Of a DNA stretch of 64,000 bases, positions 1,254 to 29,202 are shown piece after piece (positions within the stretch are counted from its first letter, which is position 1; every line of letters starts with the position of its first letter). The position numbers were made by a program, and so were the translations under genes. The notes beneath the pieces were generated by a model. That model was not told the DNA's origin, did no database searches, and worked only from the letters and a program-made list of their open reading frames with translations. The stretch is from a methanogenic archaeon ISO4-H5 (GTDB lineage Archaea; Thermoplasmatota; Thermoplasmata; Methanomassiliicoccales; Methanomethylophilaceae), in contig CP014214.1 of assembly GCA_001560915.1 (NCBI GenBank), positions 620,001-684,000 of the forward strand, in the 5' to 3' direction.

Positions 1254-2246
1254 ATACTTTTTGAGCCTGTATCTCTGATATCTGCTGCGCGGACTGTCGG
1301 GATACTCCATCTCGATGAAATCCCTCGAAATCGCAGGAGCGAGATAGTTCGTTTGGAACATGGGGCGGGAGCTCATTTTCAGAAGTTCCATAAGTTCCCT
1401 AGATGTATACCATACATCTTCTTTCATGACCGCAGTAAGTTTGGATACTGACCAGGGGACGGACTCTTCCGCAGTTCTCAGCGCGTATTCAACATCCTCC
1501 AATGCGGAAAGGATGACTCTCAGCATGAAACCGATGAACGCATCCGAGTTGCCTACCTGATTGCATTTGCCGATGACGTCATAGTATTCCTGTTGAGCCA
1601 TCCATATCCTGGTCTCTATCGGGATCCAGCGGAATACCGGTCTCCATTTTGCGAGAAGAGCCTTTTGCCACAGTCTGGCAATCCTTCCGTTACCGTCAGC
1701 GAAAGGATGAATGAACACCAGCCCATAATGGAAAACGCATGATGCTATCAACAAGCCCACGGTATCATGGGAACTGTTCAGCCATCCGAACAGATCGGCC
1801 ATCATTCCGGGTACTTTTTCCGGCGGAGGTGCCACGTATATGCAGGTATTTCCGGAGAAGACTCCTTCTTCCCCGCTGCGGAACCGTCCGGATTCTTCGA
1901 TAAGTCCTTCGGTAAGGGTGCCGTGGATGCGGAGCATTTCGTTCAAATTGCAGGGGTCGAACGATTCGAGAAGAGAGTAGGCCGCATAAGCATTCTGCAC
2001 TTCGCGAATATCTCTCTCGGGCCCGAGGACTCTGTGTCCGTTTATGATATCAGTCACCTGTCCCAGCGTCAGAGAATTGCCCTCAATCGAACAGGATGAA
2101 TGAATGGCCCGTATCATGTTTTGTATCTTCAGATGCGGGTTGCTTTCAAGTGTCCCATATCTTTCGATACGGACAAGCTTCTCCATGATGCGAAATGCCA
2201 TGTGGTGCATTTCCGGACTGATTGTGAACGCCGGTTCATAGGACAT
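1251..2246 (-). CDS. Fic family protein (putative AMP-transferase)
   Basis: Fic-domain protein of 331 residues that probably transfers AMP or another nucleotide phosphate to a protein hydroxyl. The catalytic loop HPFADGNGR is at residues 180-188 and matches HPFx(D/E)GNGRxxR. An N-terminal SCSIEGN (51-57) fits the inhibitory (S/T)xxxE(G/N) motif, so the protein looks self-inhibited (class II). A C-terminal segment (about 265-331) resembles a winged helix, common in this family and possibly autoregulatory. The gene stands alone with its own AT-rich promoter (TATA-like ATATAC near 2265). The target is unknown, and no antitoxin-like partner is visible. Confidence 0.88.
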   Translation of the reverse strand: MSYEPAFTISPEMHHMAFRIMEKLVRIERYGTLESNPHLKIQNMIRAIHSSCSIEGNSLTLGQVTDIINGHRVLGPERDIREVQNAYAAYSLLESFDPCNLNEMLRIHGTLTEGLIEESGRFRSGEEGVFSGNTCIYVAPPPEKVPGMMADLFGWLNSSHDTVGLLIASCVFHYGLVFIHPFADGNGRIARLWQKALLAKWRPVFRWIPIETRIWMAQQEYYDVIGKCNQVGNSDAFIGFMLRVILSALEDVEYALRTAEESVPWSVSKLTAVMKEDVWYTSRELMELLKMSSRPMFQTNYLAPAISRDFIEMEYPDSPRSRYQRYRLKKY

Positions 2247-2310
2247 GTTCAGTACATGTATAGTATATGTAAGATAAGTAGATTTTACATCAGAAATACT
2301 CGGCTGGGTC

Positions 2311-4605
2311 TTAGAAGCTATCCAAACTGATCTGCTTCTTTTTCTTTACCTTCGATCCCGGAACCGACCTCTCAGGAGGATTCTTGCGTGCTTCCTCCTC
2401 CGCGGCCATCTTCTCGAGCATGTATTCCATCTCGTCGTCGCGGGGCTCTTTCTCCGGCGGTGCGGATGATTTGGGCATGAACTTCACCTGTTCCTTCAGG
2501 CTCTCCGCCAGGGATCTTCCGATCTTCGGCAGGGCTGCCAGTTCTCCGATGTCGATTTGTCCGATTTCCGCCTTCCCGTGCACACCGTTGGCGTACAGGG
2601 TCCTCGCCCTCATTCTTCCCACTCCCCTCAGGGATACCAGGGGAATGAGCTCTTCCTTGACACCGTATCTCACACGGGTCAGCATAGGTCTTACTTTTTC
2701 GGAGGCGTTGGGATTGAAGATCAATGCGATCTCGTTCATGGCATACAGTATCCAATCCGCCATATCCACTCTTGAACGGATGTCTCCGGGACCGATTTTG
2801 AGAGTATCGGTCATGACATCCTCGGGCATCTCGTTGATCCACCTGACCAGGAGCAGGGCGGTCTTTAGGTCGGCCATGTGGTTGTCCCATTCCAGGTCGA
2901 AGCTCCCGTCCCCTCCGCATTCGTCCACGATGGAGACCAGGAACCTACCGTCGTATTCGGCGTCAAGAGCCTCCAATTCGGCATAGTCGTCCTTCTTGGG
3001 GTACATACCCATTACGTCAGGAGTGCAGGCGACTGCCTGCATGATCTGCATCTCGTCGGTCTCGTCGTTCATCTTCAGGACGGCTTTCTTCAAGATGACC
3101 GCCGACCACGGGTCTATGTATAAGTCGGACACCCTCTTTCCGAAAGGCAATATGCGGACGGAATCACCGTTCCTCTCGACCATCTCCTGCTCTGCCAGGA
3201 AGTCCACCACGCTTGAGATGACCCTGTCTATTCCATATAGGTCGCAGGTGGCCCCGTAGAAGGTCATGGACATGAAATCCACTATGTCCTCCTCGCTCTC
3301 CGCATCGCCCGTGGCGATAAGACCCAGGATGTGGCTTCTGAGTATCTTCTCGTTGCCGAGTTTGGAGGTGAGCCTCTCGGTCTCCTGCATGATGTAATCG
3401 TCCATCAGGTGCTGTTTGTCGTCGAAGGATTTGGCCACCAGGACCGCTTCTCCCCAGGGGTCGTAACCGGGACGTCCGGCCCTTCCGCACATCTGTTTGA
3501 TCTCCATCACGGGGATGGGGACGTTGCCGCTGTTCGATTCGAAGCGGGAGGTATCCCTGACTATGACCCTGCGGGCGGGGAGGTTGATTCCCGCCGCGAG
3601 GGTGGGTGTGGCGATGATGCACTTGATGTTCCTGCTGCGGAAGCCCTCTTCTACGCAGCGTCTCTGCTTGTACTCGAGTCCAGCATGGTGGAATGCGATA
3701 CCGCAGCTCACGCAGTCGGCCAGTTTCTTTCCTATGGAGGTGCTCTCGGTACCTCCCTCGAGGAGGGCGTAGTCAGCATCGCTCAGTACGGTCCCGGAGA
3801 TCTCGGACATCTTCTTGGCGAACTTGGTGGCCACCGCTTCGGTGGAACGGCGGGAGTTCACGAATATGATGCACTGCCCTCCCTCGAGGACAGTCTGTTT
3901 GATCATCCCCCACAGGCCGTCGGTCTCTGGGGGTACTTCTACCGAAGAGCCGTCCTCGAAGTCTATCGTTCCGTCAAGGAATACTCCTTCCTTCAATACT
4001 GTAGGGCGCCAATCCATCTTGACGTGGTCGGCGTCTAACCACAGTGCCAGATCGAGTGAATTGGAGATGGTGGCCGACAGTGCGATGACCTGCAGGTTGC
4101 GGTTCCTGCGCATGAACTTGGTCATTGCCACTTCCAAGGTCGGTCCCCTTCCGGGGTCGTGGATCATGTGAACCTCGTCCGCGATGACCAGGCCCAGGTC
4201 GGTGATCCACTTGTTATCGTGGCGGATCATCGAATCGGCCTTCTCGGAGGTTGCTATGACAATATCAGCATCGGAGATGTCGTCGTCCCTGTCGGGGTCG
4301 CCGGTGGTCATCACTACCTTAATACCCAGATGCGAGAATTTGGCAAGGTCGTCACGTTTCTCGCTGGCCAACGCCTTCAGGGGAACGATGTAGATGACAT
4401 GCAGATGCTTCTTCAGAACGGTGTTCAGGGCCGGAATGAATCCTATCATGGATTTACCGCTGGCGGTCGGGACCGCAGCGACCAGGTTCTTCCCGGTGAG
4501 GGCCTTGGGGATGGCCTCCGCCTGGGGAGGATACATCTCTATGAATCCCTGGGCCTCCAAAGCATCCTTGAGGCTGTCGGGGATATCAAGGTCCCTGAAC
4601 TTCAT
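2311..4605 (-). CDS. Ski2-like superfamily 2 helicase, Hel308 type
   Basis: ATP-dependent DNA helicase thought to act on stalled forks. The order is standard: N-terminal Q-motif (YPPQAEAI), Walker A PTASGKS, Walker B DEVH, SATISN (motif III), then domain 2 with FVNSRRS, ATPTLAAGINLPAR and QMCGRAGRPG. A winged-helix/ratchet part follows, and near the C-terminus there is a helix-hairpin-helix segment (VSLRGVGRMRARTLY, LPKIGRSLAE). The tail is charged and lysine-rich (VKKKKQISLDSF), resembling the PCNA-interacting tail seen in some archaeal repair proteins; that reading is inference. Length (764) fits Hel308. It is transcribed divergently from the gene at 4769. Confidence 0.92.
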   Translation of the reverse strand: MKFRDLDIPDSLKDALEAQGFIEMYPPQAEAIPKALTGKNLVAAVPTASGKSMIGFIPALNTVLKKHLHVIYIVPLKALASEKRDDLAKFSHLGIKVVMTTGDPDRDDDISDADIVIATSEKADSMIRHDNKWITDLGLVIADEVHMIHDPGRGPTLEVAMTKFMRRNRNLQVIALSATISNSLDLALWLDADHVKMDWRPTVLKEGVFLDGTIDFEDGSSVEVPPETDGLWGMIKQTVLEGGQCIIFVNSRRSTEAVATKFAKKMSEISGTVLSDADYALLEGGTESTSIGKKLADCVSCGIAFHHAGLEYKQRRCVEEGFRSRNIKCIIATPTLAAGINLPARRVIVRDTSRFESNSGNVPIPVMEIKQMCGRAGRPGYDPWGEAVLVAKSFDDKQHLMDDYIMQETERLTSKLGNEKILRSHILGLIATGDAESEEDIVDFMSMTFYGATCDLYGIDRVISSVVDFLAEQEMVERNGDSVRILPFGKRVSDLYIDPWSAVILKKAVLKMNDETDEMQIMQAVACTPDVMGMYPKKDDYAELEALDAEYDGRFLVSIVDECGGDGSFDLEWDNHMADLKTALLLVRWINEMPEDVMTDTLKIGPGDIRSRVDMADWILYAMNEIALIFNPNASEKVRPMLTRVRYGVKEELIPLVSLRGVGRMRARTLYANGVHGKAEIGQIDIGELAALPKIGRSLAESLKEQVKFMPKSSAPPEKEPRDDEMEYMLEKMAAEEEARKNPPERSVPGSKVKKKKQISLDSF

Positions 4606-13526: not shown

Positions 13527-14540
13527 TTACTGATTCAGTTTATCCTTTGATAGATAAGTTACAGAATGTCTGATATCTTCGGGGACGTCAAGGATTTCTA
13601 TCGCTTCTTCGACAGTAACACCATAGGTTTTCACAAGTTTGAGCACGTGGGAAACTGTCAGGTTTATCGATGTCTCTTCGATGGCGTTATCAATATATGA
13701 CTGCCTCAAATCCTCTATTATTGTGCTCATTTCTTTGACCCCCGACTCAATTATCTCATCCCAGCTTATTAAATACTTTTCCAGAAGCAGTGTTTTTCTC
13801 TCTTTCAATTTCAAGCCTGCAGAGAAAAGTGTATTCAGCATACCTATCATTCTGCTTACAGAATCTTCAGATTCGTATGTTTCATCTAATCCGGGTTGTT
13901 TTGGTTCTCCTAAGAAGATGAAATAGGTTGTTATTTGATCTTTTTTGGGAATGGGTTCCCCACTCTCAAACCTATCCACATAACGTCCAGTTGTCGAATA
14001 TTGGATAATGCTATTCTCTCTGTTTTTCGGTGGATTCAAGAAAATCCAAACAGAGACTACTTTGCGGAGAGTTTTGTACTTATCCTCCGTTGAACAAGAA
14101 TGTTTCTGATTTGTTTCTTGCTCAATCTGATGATTCACACTGCCCCTGTCTGGGTACAATTGTGAGAATATTAGTGCAGATTCATATCCAGTTGCCCGGT
14201 TAGTTATCGGATAGGATGTGTGATACTTTCCCTGAGCTTCTATATGGAATCTAAGGGAAACATCTTCTTCTTTGTTTGGTAACCTGATGTCGTAAAGGAG
14301 ATCTAGGCGCAGAGGTGAACCCGTGTCACCGGCTAACTCACCATTCACTCTCTGAGGGGTATTGGATTTAGGTCCGATAAAGTACTGCGGAACCATAGCG
14401 GGATCCATCGTTTTGAATTCCGGAACGCATCCGCAAATCATGTTGGAGAGGATTGGTGCATGCTCCATCAACTTCTTTATCGCTAAGTCGCCTCTAATTC
14501 CGAGCTTATCATTTCCCGATTCTGTATCTTGGTCAGTCAT
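13527..14540 (-). CDS. Rpn/PD-(D/E)XK nuclease family putative transposase-like protein
   Basis: 337-residue protein of the Rpn-type (recombination-promoting nuclease) PD-(D/E)XK group. The nuclease core is RLDLLYDIRLP followed by RFHIEAQGKYH, giving the D...ExQ metal-binding pattern. The C-terminal third is helical and ends in a short regulatory-looking segment. It is AT-richer than its neighbours, which suits a laterally acquired gene. A related but disrupted gene lies at 26.7 kb, and both proteins begin MTDQ. The biological role of these proteins in archaea is unknown. Confidence 0.8.
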   Translation of the reverse strand: MTDQDTESGNDKLGIRGDLAIKKLMEHAPILSNMICGCVPEFKTMDPAMVPQYFIGPKSNTPQRVNGELAGDTGSPLRLDLLYDIRLPNKEEDVSLRFHIEAQGKYHTSYPITNRATGYESALIFSQLYPDRGSVNHQIEQETNQKHSCSTEDKYKTLRKVVSVWIFLNPPKNRENSIIQYSTTGRYVDRFESGEPIPKKDQITTYFIFLGEPKQPGLDETYESEDSVSRMIGMLNTLFSAGLKLKERKTLLLEKYLISWDEIIESGVKEMSTIIEDLRQSYIDNAIEETSINLTVSHVLKLVKTYGVTVEEAIEILDVPEDIRHSVTYLSKDKLNQ

Positions 14541-26682: not shown

Positions 26683-27399
26683 ATGACTGACCAAACTGCC
26701 AAGATGGAAGTGATTCTGCGTTCAGCAGATGAAGCTTTTAAGGAATTGATCCACGAGAAGGATGTTCTAGCCTGGACTGCTAAAGCAGCCGTCGACGAAT
26801 TCAAGAATCTGGACGTCGAAGTCATCAAGGATATGATCTGCGAGGATGGATGCAAAGTCTTGGGATTGAGTGAGGAACCCAATCTCCTGGGGGCCGGGAG
26901 GATAAGGCTGGATAATCTGTTCGGCTTCAAATACCCAGACGGTAAGAAAATCGGACTTCTGCTCAATGTAGAATCTCAGAACCGCCGCAACCCGGGATAC
27001 CCTTTGGATCTACGTGCACTGTACTATGCCACACGTCTGTTCGCTTTTCAGGATCCTCGTGGCAATTATGAGGATCTGAAGTCCGTCTACTCTGTGTGGA
27101 TTATGCCCCGTTCTTGTGATGACGGGGTAGTTCACATCAATACCTATGCGATGCGTAATGTGGAAGGATTCTCGCAACCGCAATTGGAACACGGTGATTG
27201 CATGAAACTTGTGTTCGTCCATTTGCCCCGGAAATATAGGGCAAGGAAAGCTAACCCGCTTGCATTCTTGACCCTTATGTTTTCAGACACATCGATCAAG
27301 GAAGATAGATTGATCGATATTCTTAGCAATAAGCTTAAGATGACGCAACATTTAGCACTAGGTTTTCTTGAATCCTCGATATGTCTGTTTTTCGATTGA
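26683..27399 (+). pseudogene. Rpn/PD-(D/E)XK family gene, N-terminal part, split by TnpB element
   Basis: N-terminal portion starting MTDQTAKMEV, like the intact relative at 14540 (both begin MTDQ). The nuclease region RLDNLFGFKYP and LLLNVESQNRR correspond to the D...ExQ core. Native sequence runs to about 27350 (…SNKLKMTQ); the last codons (LALGFLESSICLFFD) read into the element. Precise removal of 27351-28895 rejoins the frame to the piece at 28896-29202 and gives 324 residues, close to the 337 of the intact copy. A TATA-like TTATAT lies at 26646. Confidence 0.7.
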
Positions 27400-27500
27400 A
27401 TTTCTGCCTGATTCAAAAGGATTTCAATGAATTTTCACGGTTTTAAGACGGTTTTTACGGCAAATACAGACCTTGCGGATCGTACCTGCGATACTTGGTC

Positions 27501-27518
27501 TAGTGCTAAATAGCACTA
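27501..27518. repeat. Palindrome in the left end of the TnpB element
   Basis: TAGTGCTA-AA-TAGCACTA, an 8-bp perfect stem with a 2-nt spacer. IS200/IS605 elements carry subterminal hairpins recognised by TnpA. This one repeats the sequence of the terminal inverted repeats. Confidence 0.6.
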
Positions 27519-27612
27519 TACCGACGGTGATAATTCGGGTAAGCGAGAGGGTGCTGCAGTGTTACATGTAAACCATAGCTTCAAATAAGCACATATCGAG
27601 AAACGTATCATT

Positions 27613-28848
27613 ATGTACAGGTCGCTGAAGATGAGGATCGAACCGGACTCGGAGCAGAGGAAGGTGATCGAGGCATCGTTCAGATACCACTGTTACGTAT
27701 ACAACGCCCTCATCACCGCCTGCAAATCATATTACCGGAGCACCGGCAGGCTGCCTTCCCAGTTCGATCTTAACAAGCTGTGTACGAGGATCTGGCACAA
27801 CTGTCCCTTCCTTCACAGGTACCTCTATCAGAATGCCATGAACGAGACCGCGAAACGCGTCCTTCAGGCATTCGCCAAATGCGAGGAGAACCGCAGGAGG
27901 AAGGAGAGGAGGAACAGGAGGAAGTCCAAAGGAAAGGAGGATGCCGAGGTCACTACACCTCCGGAAACGGGATTGGCCTGTCCCAGGTTCAGGAAGCCCT
28001 CCAGATTCCATTCGTACACCAATCCCCTGCACATGGAGGCCTTTACCGAAAGGAACGGCAGACGCACGCTGAAGGTGTCGAAGATAAAAGGGCCCGTCCG
28101 CTGCTATAACCAGAAGACCCCGGTCCCCGGGGTGCCCAAGACCTGTACCATAGAGAAGGTGGACAGGGGCACTCATACCGAATATTATGCATGTCTCTCC
28201 TGCTGGGACGATATCGAACGCCGCAGAGGGGAGGAGTATCTAAGCGAACATTCCCCCGATGCCGTGGGAATAGATATGGGTGTATCCAAGACCGCCACGC
28301 TGTCCAACGGCACAGTGTACGGTAACGATCACATGTACTCGAAACTGCTGGACCTTTTCAGGAAGAAGCACGAGGCATTCAGCGATATGCTTCCGGGCAC
28401 TCCCGGATATAGGAAGGCAAGGTCCCGTCTGATCCATCTCTACGGGAGGCTCAGGGGGATCCGCAGGAACAATGTGGAGACCATCTCCCGTCAGATTGTA
28501 GATGCTTTCGACATCATATGCATGGAGGATCTCAAAGTAGGAAAGATAAGAAGGAAATCCAGAGGAAAACGCATGACGAACGCATACGACGACGCATCCC
28601 TGGGGATGCTGAGGAGGAGGATCATCGACAAAGCGATAGAAGCTGGCCGTAAGATAATCCTCGTCAATCCCAAATGGACGTCCCAGGTATGCTGCAGATG
28701 CGGAGCATGCGTGAGGAAAAGCCTGGAGGTAAGGACACACGTGTGTCCCGAATGCGGCCTTGTTATAGACCGCGACCTCAACAGTGCGATAAACATCTTG
28801 ATATGGGGGTTGACCGGCAACCCTTTCCCTGAAAGATGGGATGAATAG
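27613..28848 (+). CDS. tnpB: RNA-guided endonuclease TnpB
   Basis: 411-residue IS200/IS605-family TnpB. It uses a guide RNA derived from the element's right end to cut DNA next to a short motif and so favours retention of the element. The RuvC residues appear intact: D in GIDMGVSKTA, E in CMEDLKVG, and D in DRDLNSAINIL. The zinc finger CCRCGAC...CPECG lies between the last two. Three N-terminal helices and the REC-like region are basic, with a stretch of Arg and Lys (RRRKERRNRRKSKGK). Codon use is GC-rich, unlike the AT-rich host gene around it. No disruption is seen, so it may be active. Confidence 0.92.
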   Translation: MYRSLKMRIEPDSEQRKVIEASFRYHCYVYNALITACKSYYRSTGRLPSQFDLNKLCTRIWHNCPFLHRYLYQNAMNETAKRVLQAFAKCEENRRRKERRNRRKSKGKEDAEVTTPPETGLACPRFRKPSRFHSYTNPLHMEAFTERNGRRTLKVSKIKGPVRCYNQKTPVPGVPKTCTIEKVDRGTHTEYYACLSCWDDIERRRGEEYLSEHSPDAVGIDMGVSKTATLSNGTVYGNDHMYSKLLDLFRKKHEAFSDMLPGTPGYRKARSRLIHLYGRLRGIRRNNVETISRQIVDAFDIICMEDLKVGKIRRKSRGKRMTNAYDDASLGMLRRRIIDKAIEAGRKIILVNPKWTSQVCCRCGACVRKSLEVRTHVCPECGLVIDRDLNSAINILIWGLTGNPFPERWDE

Positions 28849-28895
28849 CCTGACGTTCGCGTACAGGCACAAAACAGATGGGATCTAGTGCTAAA

Positions 28896-29202
28896 ATTGA
28901 TTTCATCTAAGGATAAGTATAAAATCTCTACACCAGATTTGTTTAAATGGAGGGGAAAGTTCATGAACAGTTTCGCTGAGGACATTTCTGAGTATTACAA
29001 GTATCAGGGATTCGAATTAGGTAAGGCTGAAGGTAAAGCGGAGTCGGAAGAATCCTTCGCTAAAATCCTATCTGAGCATATTCTCTCTCGCGGTCCCAGG
29101 GATATGGAAGAAGCTAGAACGATTCTGGCTGAGTTTAATATCTCCGCGGAGCTTTACAGTATGACTCTTGCTGAGCTCCGCAAGAGTTTAGATACCCACT
29201 AA
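28896..29202 (+). pseudogene. C-terminal part of the split Rpn-family gene
   Basis: Continuation of the gene starting at 26683: frame is preserved, and the product ends in the helical region FELGKAEGKAESEE typical of the C-terminal tail of these proteins, then ARTILAEFNISAELYSMTLAEL. A GTG (28888) or the ATG at 28963 could start an independent short protein. No ribosome site distinguishes a functional product, though GGAGGGGAAAG precedes the ATG at 28963. Confidence 0.6.

What the first reader, a model, noticed from the sequence alone, without database searches (positions are those of the whole stretch)
26683..29202. TnpB element inserted into an Rpn-family nuclease gene
The flanking pieces read in the same frame and, joined after removing 27351-28895, give 324 residues against 337 in the intact relative at 13527-14540. 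The element lacks TnpA. An RNA-guided nuclease gene sitting in another nuclease-like gene gives a dated insertion and defines the flanking sequence that TnpB should recognise (bases just before 27351, ending GCAACA).
Basis: partly seen in the sequence, partly recalled or inferred. Interest (0 to 1): 0.58.

Follow-up and report, generated by a model that had tools for sequence, protein, structure and literature searches.

The report
TnpB riding a cut-and-paste transposon
In a methane-producing archaeon, a gene for an RNA-guided DNA cutter (TnpB) has jumped into a nuclease-like gene inside a classical cut-and-paste transposon, a carrier type reported for the eukaryotic relatives (Fanzors) of this cutter but, as far as the papers I could search show, not for prokaryotic TnpB.

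Summary
Comparing four full copies in the same genome places the element at 27334-28912 (1579 bp), 17 bp further out on each side. It has imperfect 28-bp terminal inverted repeats (TIRs) and a 5-bp target duplication, ATAAG. GCAACA lies inside the left repeat and is not target sequence. Repeats plus duplication are the hallmark of a DDE transposon. The genome lacks Y1 TnpA but holds three identical 2034-bp IS1634-like insertion sequences whose left repeat matches 25 of 28 positions and which share a subterminal palindrome at the same offset. All TnpBs with such ends (16 labelled) fall in one clade of this archaeal family; 0 of 69 distant TnpB controls show them. The predicted guide-RNA 3' hairpin is built partly from the right repeat. 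I read it as TnpB captured by a cut-and-paste element and mobilised in trans, parallel to Fanzor1. Retention by cutting the empty site is inferred; no TAM was found.

The parts
26683..27333 (+). 5' part (217 codons) of interrupted PD-(D/E)XK/PDDEXK_2-like nuclease gene
   Evidence: PF12784 E 8.5e-6, below gathering cut-off; 56% paralog L183
27329..27333 (.). left target-site duplication ATAAG
   Evidence: identical to 28913-28917; element boundary from copy comparison
27334..27361 (+). left terminal inverted repeat (28 bp)
   Evidence: 20/28 to right TIR, 25/28 to left TIR of the 2034-bp IS
27498..27519 (.). subterminal palindrome CTAGTGCTAAATAGCACTA, same offset (~165) as in the IS1634-like IS
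27613..28848 (+). tnpB, 411 aa, RuvC D221/E305/D388 and zinc ribbon invariant in the family; stop TAG
   Evidence: NF040570 E 2.9e-59; alignment A2; ISDra2 TnpB 8bf8 E 9.8e-46 for the family profile
28848..28868 (+). predicted omegaRNA hairpin 1 (GCCTGACG-TTCG-CGT.A.CAGGC)
   Evidence: fold z -4.17 for 28843-28912; U-A to C-G change on both sides in two rows
28876..28908 (+). predicted omegaRNA hairpin 2; its 3' arm is the right TIR
28885..28912 (-). right terminal inverted repeat (28 bp)
28913..28917 (.). right target-site duplication ATAAG
28913..28932 (+). predicted guide region (flank read through the right end); inferred, length assumed
   Evidence: inference from TnpB/omegaRNA architecture; not tested
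28918..29202 (+). 3' part of interrupted nuclease-like gene
   Evidence: in frame after removal of 27334-28917; gapless alignment across the junction to paralog

Best explanation
The insert is a non-autonomous cut-and-paste (DDE-type, IS1634-like) transposon whose only gene is tnpB. SHOWN: 28-bp imperfect TIRs, a 5-bp duplication, four full copies and remnants in the genome, shared left TIR and subterminal palindrome with a resident multicopy IS1634-like IS, absence of Y1 TnpA, and a clade of related TnpBs with the same end architecture. INFERRED: an IS1634-family DDE transposase acting in trans excises and inserts the element and makes the duplication. The omegaRNA is read from the 3' end of tnpB through the right TIR, which forms its last hairpin, into the flank, so each copy carries a guide against its own insertion site (here ATAAGTATAAAATC...). 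TnpB then cuts the empty site left by excision or present on a sister chromosome, and homologous repair copies the element back, which aids retention as in the IS200/IS605 model. The host nuclease-like gene is disrupted.
For: Copy comparison fixes ends 27334/28912. TSDs: c1 ATAAG, c2 TTTTAC, c4 TTGAT. Three identical 2034-bp IS copies with TSDs CTAGAA, ATATAG, CTAAA; transposase hits NF033559 IS1634 E 2.6e-25 (89 bits, under the 100-bit cut-off) and PF01609. Left TIR 25/28 and palindrome at offset 165-167 shared with the IS. Y1 TnpA PF01797: 0 in own genome, present in 2 of 102 family genomes, control genomes ring. Strict TIR+TSD rule: 10 of 44 testable family TnpB loci (10 of 25 at >=40% identity, 0 of 19 below), shuffled null 1 of 1100; 0 of 69 distant TnpB loci (listing). 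All 16 labelled rows lie in one 26-row clade, support 100/99. Right-end RNA: z -4.17; 93.2% of cells paired, slides at most 34.7%, covariation score reached by 2 of 500 shuffles; the same two-hairpin layout in other subfamilies, z -5.5, -4.56, -3.75. Candidate element with both DDE and TnpB: G018:C85.
Against: No exact TSD for c3 (TTTTAT/TTGTAT, 5 of 6) and none for the 41-bp piece. TIRs of the window copy are imperfect (20/28) and fall below my own strict rule, so the window copy itself is not among the 10. TSDs of the resident IS (CTAGAA, ATATAG, CTAAA) look unlike those of the TnpB elements, so this IS may not be the actual mobiliser. The right TIRs match less well (19/28). 34 of 44 testable loci fail the strict rule. 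Two of five other right ends fold no better than shuffles (L035 z -1.1, L095 z -0.49). No TAM-like consensus upstream of the duplication (at most 0.75 bits over 12 sites), which weakens the retention mechanism. No orthologous empty site was found: the syntenic contig G022:C49 ends at window ~26849. No expression or cleavage data.
Confidence: 0.82

Rival explanations
1. An ordinary IS200/IS605-type TnpB-only element (IS1341-like) with ends at 27351/28895, moved by Y1 TnpA in trans; the outer similarity is shared insertion-site sequence.
For: TnpB matches the IS200/IS605 TnpB profile (NF038281 E 4.2e-45, below its cut-off); TnpB-only elements are common in archaea (PMC3119063, passages).
Against: 17 bp on each side are shared by all four full copies at unrelated loci and extend the inverted repeat; target duplications lie outside them. 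No Y1 TnpA in the genome. IS200/IS605 elements make no TSD or TIR (PMC3627910 passages).
Confidence: 0.04
2. A TnpB element of IS605/IS607 type inserted into a pre-existing IS1634-derived MITE, and the MITE now carries it as dead cargo; the RNA-TIR overlap is incidental.
For: Imperfect TIRs, non-autonomy, and a 41-bp TIR-only piece at G000:C1:770552 show that MITE-like derivatives exist.
Against: The TnpB open frame and active-site residues are kept in diverged subfamilies; right-end hairpins covary; the arrangement is kept across one clade with two TIR types.
Confidence: 0.12
3. IS607-type element moved by a serine recombinase.
For: Three PF00239 recombinases in the genome.
Against: Catalytic domains score best with large recombinases (XisF, CcrB) and stay far under the IS607 cut-off of 110 bits (41, 39 and 22 bits). 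IS607 elements have no TIR or TSD (PMC6188088, abstract in search listing).
Confidence: 0.02

Closest known systems
Fanzor1 and Fanzor2* elements of eukaryotes and their viruses (TnpB homologs in IS4-like, Mariner, Sola, MuDR and other cut-and-paste transposons)
   Same: TnpB-type nuclease inside a TIR/TSD transposon, with and without its own transposase; TIR (and TSD) predicted to be part of the guide-RNA scaffold (PMC3627910 and PMC10711439, passages and section 28)
   Different: Here the host is an archaeon and the carrier is IS1634-like. The protein has a D-M-G motif rather than the DPG signature reported for Fanzors (signature from the Fig. 1 legend).
IS200/IS605 family and TnpB-only IS1341-type elements (ISDra2)
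   Same: TnpB with RuvC triad and zinc ribbon; structured right-end RNA
   Different: Carrier has TIRs and target duplications; no Y1 TnpA in the genome
IS1634 family insertion sequences (DDE)
   Same: TIRs starting with C, short duplications, shared left TIR and subterminal palindrome with the resident IS
   Different: The transposase gene is replaced by tnpB
ISHwa23 of Haloquadratum walsbyi (IS605-type; 52-bp core-deleted version)
   Same: A short terminal-only derivative exists, as the 41-bp piece does here (PMC3119063, passages)
   Different: It is filed there among IS605-type transposons, which lack TIRs and target duplications

Membership tests
TnpB RNA-guided nuclease | RuvC D-E-D triad, zinc ribbon, full-length profile match | tested here: met
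   NF040570 201 bits over cut-off 100; D221, E305, D388 and four cysteines invariant in A2; ISDra2 TnpB 8bf8 E 9.8e-46 with the A2 profile
TnpB RNA-guided nuclease | guide RNA and DNA cleavage | not testable with these tools
   only predicted hairpins with limited covariation
IS200/IS605 (incl. IS1341-type) | no terminal inverted repeats, no target duplication | tested here: not met
   28-bp TIRs and TSD ATAAG
IS200/IS605 (incl. IS1341-type) | Y1 (HUH) TnpA available | tested here: not met
   PF01797: 0 matches in own genome, 2 of 102 family genomes
IS607 | serine TnpA; no TIR/TSD | tested here: not met
   no recombinase reaches the IS607 cut-off (only the catalytic-domain stretches were scanned); TIR and TSD present
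IS1634 (DDE) | TIRs with terminal C and short duplications | tested here: met
   duplications of 6-8 bp found for 16 of 20 fetched IS1634-type loci and of 5-6 bp for the 2034-bp IS; same layout here with 5 bp
IS1634 (DDE) | encodes the DDE transposase | tested here: not met
   only tnpB is in the element; the transposase is encoded elsewhere
Fanzor1/Fanzor2* | DPG signature | tested here: not met
   D-M-G at 221-223 in the window protein; D-x-G without proline in the 10 aligned proteins
Fanzor1/Fanzor2* | TnpB homolog inside a DDE TIR/TSD transposon | tested here: met
Rpn / PDDEXK_2 nuclease (host gene) | profile match over cut-off | tested here: inconclusive
   PF12784 26.1 vs 27.4 bits; paralogs 22.5 and 19.5 bits; no NCBIfam Rpn hit

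The most novel reading that the evidence does not exclude
A whole clade of archaeal TnpBs was captured once by IS1634-type DDE transposons, evolved an omegaRNA whose terminal hairpin is the transposon's own inverted repeat (so one sequence serves the DDE transposase and the RNA-guided nuclease), and includes autonomous chimeras that carry both DDE transposase and TnpB (candidate G018:C85). This would be a prokaryotic counterpart of the Fanzor1 transition and a working RNA-guided retention system on a DDE element.
Probability: 0.4. Interest if true: 0.82.

Novelty: new variant of a known kind. Interest (0 to 1): 0.66.

Why it matters
Prokaryotic TnpB is described as belonging to IS200/IS605 and IS607 elements, and TnpB-only elements as lacking TIRs and target duplications (PMC3627910 passages; PMC12477157 passages). 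A prokaryotic TnpB in a TIR/TSD element breaks that rule and gives a tractable archaeal parallel to how eukaryotic Fanzors moved to cut-and-paste transposons. It makes testable whether RNA-guided retention works when the partner is a DDE transposase, whether a TIR can double as guide-RNA scaffold, and how a TAM requirement copes with loosely specific insertion. It also warns that TnpB ends annotated from inner repeats may be wrong, and with them the inferred TAM and guide.

Tried and rejected

TAM or scaffold reading of the duplication. 23 of 27 right flanks of TnpB elements begin with TT against 7 of 22 for IS1634-type IS (Fisher p 2.8e-4). A first look at 6 IS gave 0 of 6, which looked TnpB-specific, but widening the control showed that one IS subgroup (L340-L345) has TT in 5 of 6, so the bias may belong to the transposase; no TAM is claimed. 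The sequence upstream of the duplication has no consensus (at most 0.75 bits).

Orthologous empty allele: not found. G022:C49 is 88% identical and syntenic, but the contig ends inside the gene; the genus searches give no orthologous junction.

Autonomous element: G018:C85 (L333) has IS1634 ORF 203-1645 and TnpB 1811-3082 with a TIR-type right end at 3155 and no TIR recognised between them, but the contig starts before any left end, so IS insertion next to tnpB is not excluded. L335 has TnpB and IS1634 convergent; not interpreted further.

Loose TIR+TSD rule (12 of 44, one of them spurious at the c3 copy; null 7 of 300) was replaced by a strict rule, because 8 of 69 distant controls passed the loose one. 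Of 61 TnpB loci gathered, 17 had too little flank and were dropped. One negative locus (L090 = L206) is counted twice. Of the 80 distant loci fetched, 71 were put into and 2 of these were too short.

Tree labels: L035, L037, L038, L039, L334, L087 and L032 were labelled TIR_TSD by reading their ends, not by the strict rule.

Other searches: Rfam, no hit. Viral contigs: none for the single protein, 6 distant relatives with the alignment. Phage records: best-ranked 29% identity; plasmid records: best-ranked 28%. Structure prediction was not run.

Full report
WHERE IT IS. The window is G000:C1:620001-684000 of a single-contig genome of 1,937,883 bp. The published genome of the rumen methanogen ISO4-H5 (Methanomassiliicoccales) is 1,937,882 bp (PMC5011839, passages), so the organism is probably ISO4-H5; this is inference from size.

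THE OBSERVATION. tnpB (27613-28848, 411 aa) lies between two in-frame pieces of a nuclease-like gene. It matches the guided_TnpB model NF040570 with 201 bits against a cut-off of 100. The host gene matches PF12784 PDDEXK_2 just under its cut-off (26.1 vs 27.4 bits), so 'Rpn family' is a loose label.

THE ENDS. The genome holds three more full copies (96, 94 and 93% identical), an 81-bp right-end match and a 41-bp piece made only of end sequence at 770552-770592. A search with the whole locus gives the same limits in the two copies that align cleanly (c2 and c4: window 27334-28912); c3 runs ten bases further on the right. The full copies are 1575-1587 bp and 92.5-96.8% identical pairwise. The outer sequences form 28-bp imperfect inverted repeats (20 of 28). 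Duplications follow outside them: ATAAG here, TTTTAC in c2 and TTGAT in c4; c3 has TTTTAT/TTGTAT, 5 of 6.

THE EMPTY SITE. Removing the element and one ATAAG gives 936 bases and a 311-aa protein. The intact paralog at G000:C1:1351262 (56% identity) aligns without a gap across the junction (SNKYKIS / AQKYNIA), and its DNA similarity resumes at window 28915. An orthologous empty allele was not found.

WHAT MOVES IT. Three identical copies of a 2034-bp insertion sequence in the same genome have duplications CTAGAA, ATATAG and CTAAA. Their transposase resembles IS1634 (NF033559 E 2.6e-25, 89 bits under a cut-off of 100; PF01609). The left repeat matches that of the TnpB element at 25 of 28 positions; the right ends match at 19 of 28. 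Both elements carry the palindrome CTAGTGCTA-NN-TAGCACTA at offset 165-187. Elsewhere in the window no site matches this repeat better than 17 of 28. Y1 TnpA is absent from the genome and present in 2 of 102 family genomes; three serine recombinases exist but none reaches the IS607 cut-off. That this very IS acts in trans is inferred; its target duplications look different from those of the TnpB elements.

HOW WIDESPREAD. In the archaeal family, 24 of 102 genomes have a TnpB match at E <= 1e-30 and 72 of 102 have an IS1634-type transposase at E <= 1e-10. I gathered 61 TnpB loci, of which 44 had enough flank. Under a strict rule (at least 12 of 18 end bases with a duplication of 6 or more, or at least 14 of 18 with 5 or more) 10 of 44 are positive: 10 of 25 with >=40% identity to the window protein and 0 of 19 below; shuffled flanks give 1 of 1100. 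None of 69 distant TnpB loci listed meets the strict rule (8 of 69 met the loose one). The window copy fails the strict rule because its repeats are too diverged; its ends rest on copy comparison. A second repeat type, CYYGASTTTGACA, marks other TnpB subfamilies and also IS1634-type elements in the family (L322, L324, L328). In a tree of 51 TnpBs all 16 labelled rows fall in one clade of 26 rows (support 100/99); 13 other TnpBs of the archaeal family lie outside it.

A POSSIBLE COMPLETE ELEMENT. G018:C85 has an IS1634-type ORF (203-1645) followed on the same strand by TnpB (1811-3082) and a repeat-type right end at 3155, with no repeat recognised between them. The contig begins before a left end, so this stays a candidate.

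THE RNA. The last 70 bases fold into two hairpins (z -4.17, 0 of 200 shuffles as good). The 3' arm of the second is the right inverted repeat. Over 9 right ends (7 distinct rows) 93.2% of cells pair; sliding the partners drops this to at most 34.7%; three pairs change on both sides and the covariation score is reached by 2 of 500 shuffles. The same two-hairpin layout is predicted in other subfamilies (L039 z -5.5, L113 z -4.56, L333 z -3.75), but L035 (-1.1) and L095 (-0.49) are not better than shuffles. Rfam has no match.

MECHANISM. Shown: the anatomy above. Inferred: a DDE transposase in trans excises and inserts the element; the omegaRNA runs through the right repeat into the flank; TnpB cuts the empty site and repair restores the element. 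For the guide to spare the occupied site it should start at the duplication, with the TAM upstream of it, but that position has no consensus (12 sites, at most 0.75 bits). Alternatively the duplication is part of the scaffold, as proposed for Fanzors in cut-and-paste transposons (PMC10711439, section 28 and passages). Right flanks of TnpB elements begin with TT in 23 of 27 cases against 7 of 22 for IS1634-type elements, but one IS subgroup shows the same bias, so this is a lead only.

LITERATURE. Bao and Jurka (PMC3627910, passages) place prokaryotic TnpB in IS200/IS605 or IS607 and report Fanzor1 in IS4-like, Mariner, Sola and MuDR elements. A 2025 review (PMC12477157, passages) says TnpB-only transposons lack TIR and TSD. 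Searches listed no paper that I recognised as describing a prokaryotic TnpB in a DDE element; the library is partial. I therefore call it a new variant of a known kind.

Noticed in passing
G000:C1:1454216-1454313 (L034 2717-2814): A 98-bp right-end remnant with the end of tnpB, both predicted RNA hairpins and the right TIR, 100% identical to copy c2 over 100 bp but without the rest of the element; a possible stand-alone guide RNA or a very recent deletion.
   Followed up: partly
G000:C1:770552-770592 (L031): A 41-bp palindromic piece consisting only of TIR-type ends, without a clear target duplication.
   Followed up: partly
window 28846-29202: tnpB ends in TAG in all four copies. In the window copy the same frame stays open past the stop, through the right TIR into the nuclease tail (to 29202); the ISO4-H5 paper reports pyrrolysine and amber codons in 10 insertion sequence elements (PMC5011839, passages).
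   Followed up: no
L038 1372-2868 (G000:C1 about 219871-221367): A TnpB element of another subfamily is split by about 1.5 kb holding an ORF that looks like an IS110-type transposase (label recalled, no search).
   Followed up: no
L031 2117-3896: Adjacent ORFs that look like a sirtuin and a macrodomain protein (from recall, no search) next to the 41-bp piece.
   Followed up: no
G000:C1:646683, 1351262, 1408163, 509561, 1370692, 1187713: The interrupted gene belongs to a family with six matches in this genome at E <= 1e-6.
   Followed up: partly
L335 (G091:C10:1-3203): TnpB and an IS1634-type transposase in convergent orientation about 60 bp apart, with a short direct repeat GGTAGGTAAAC on both sides of the IS gene (read by eye).
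   Followed up: no
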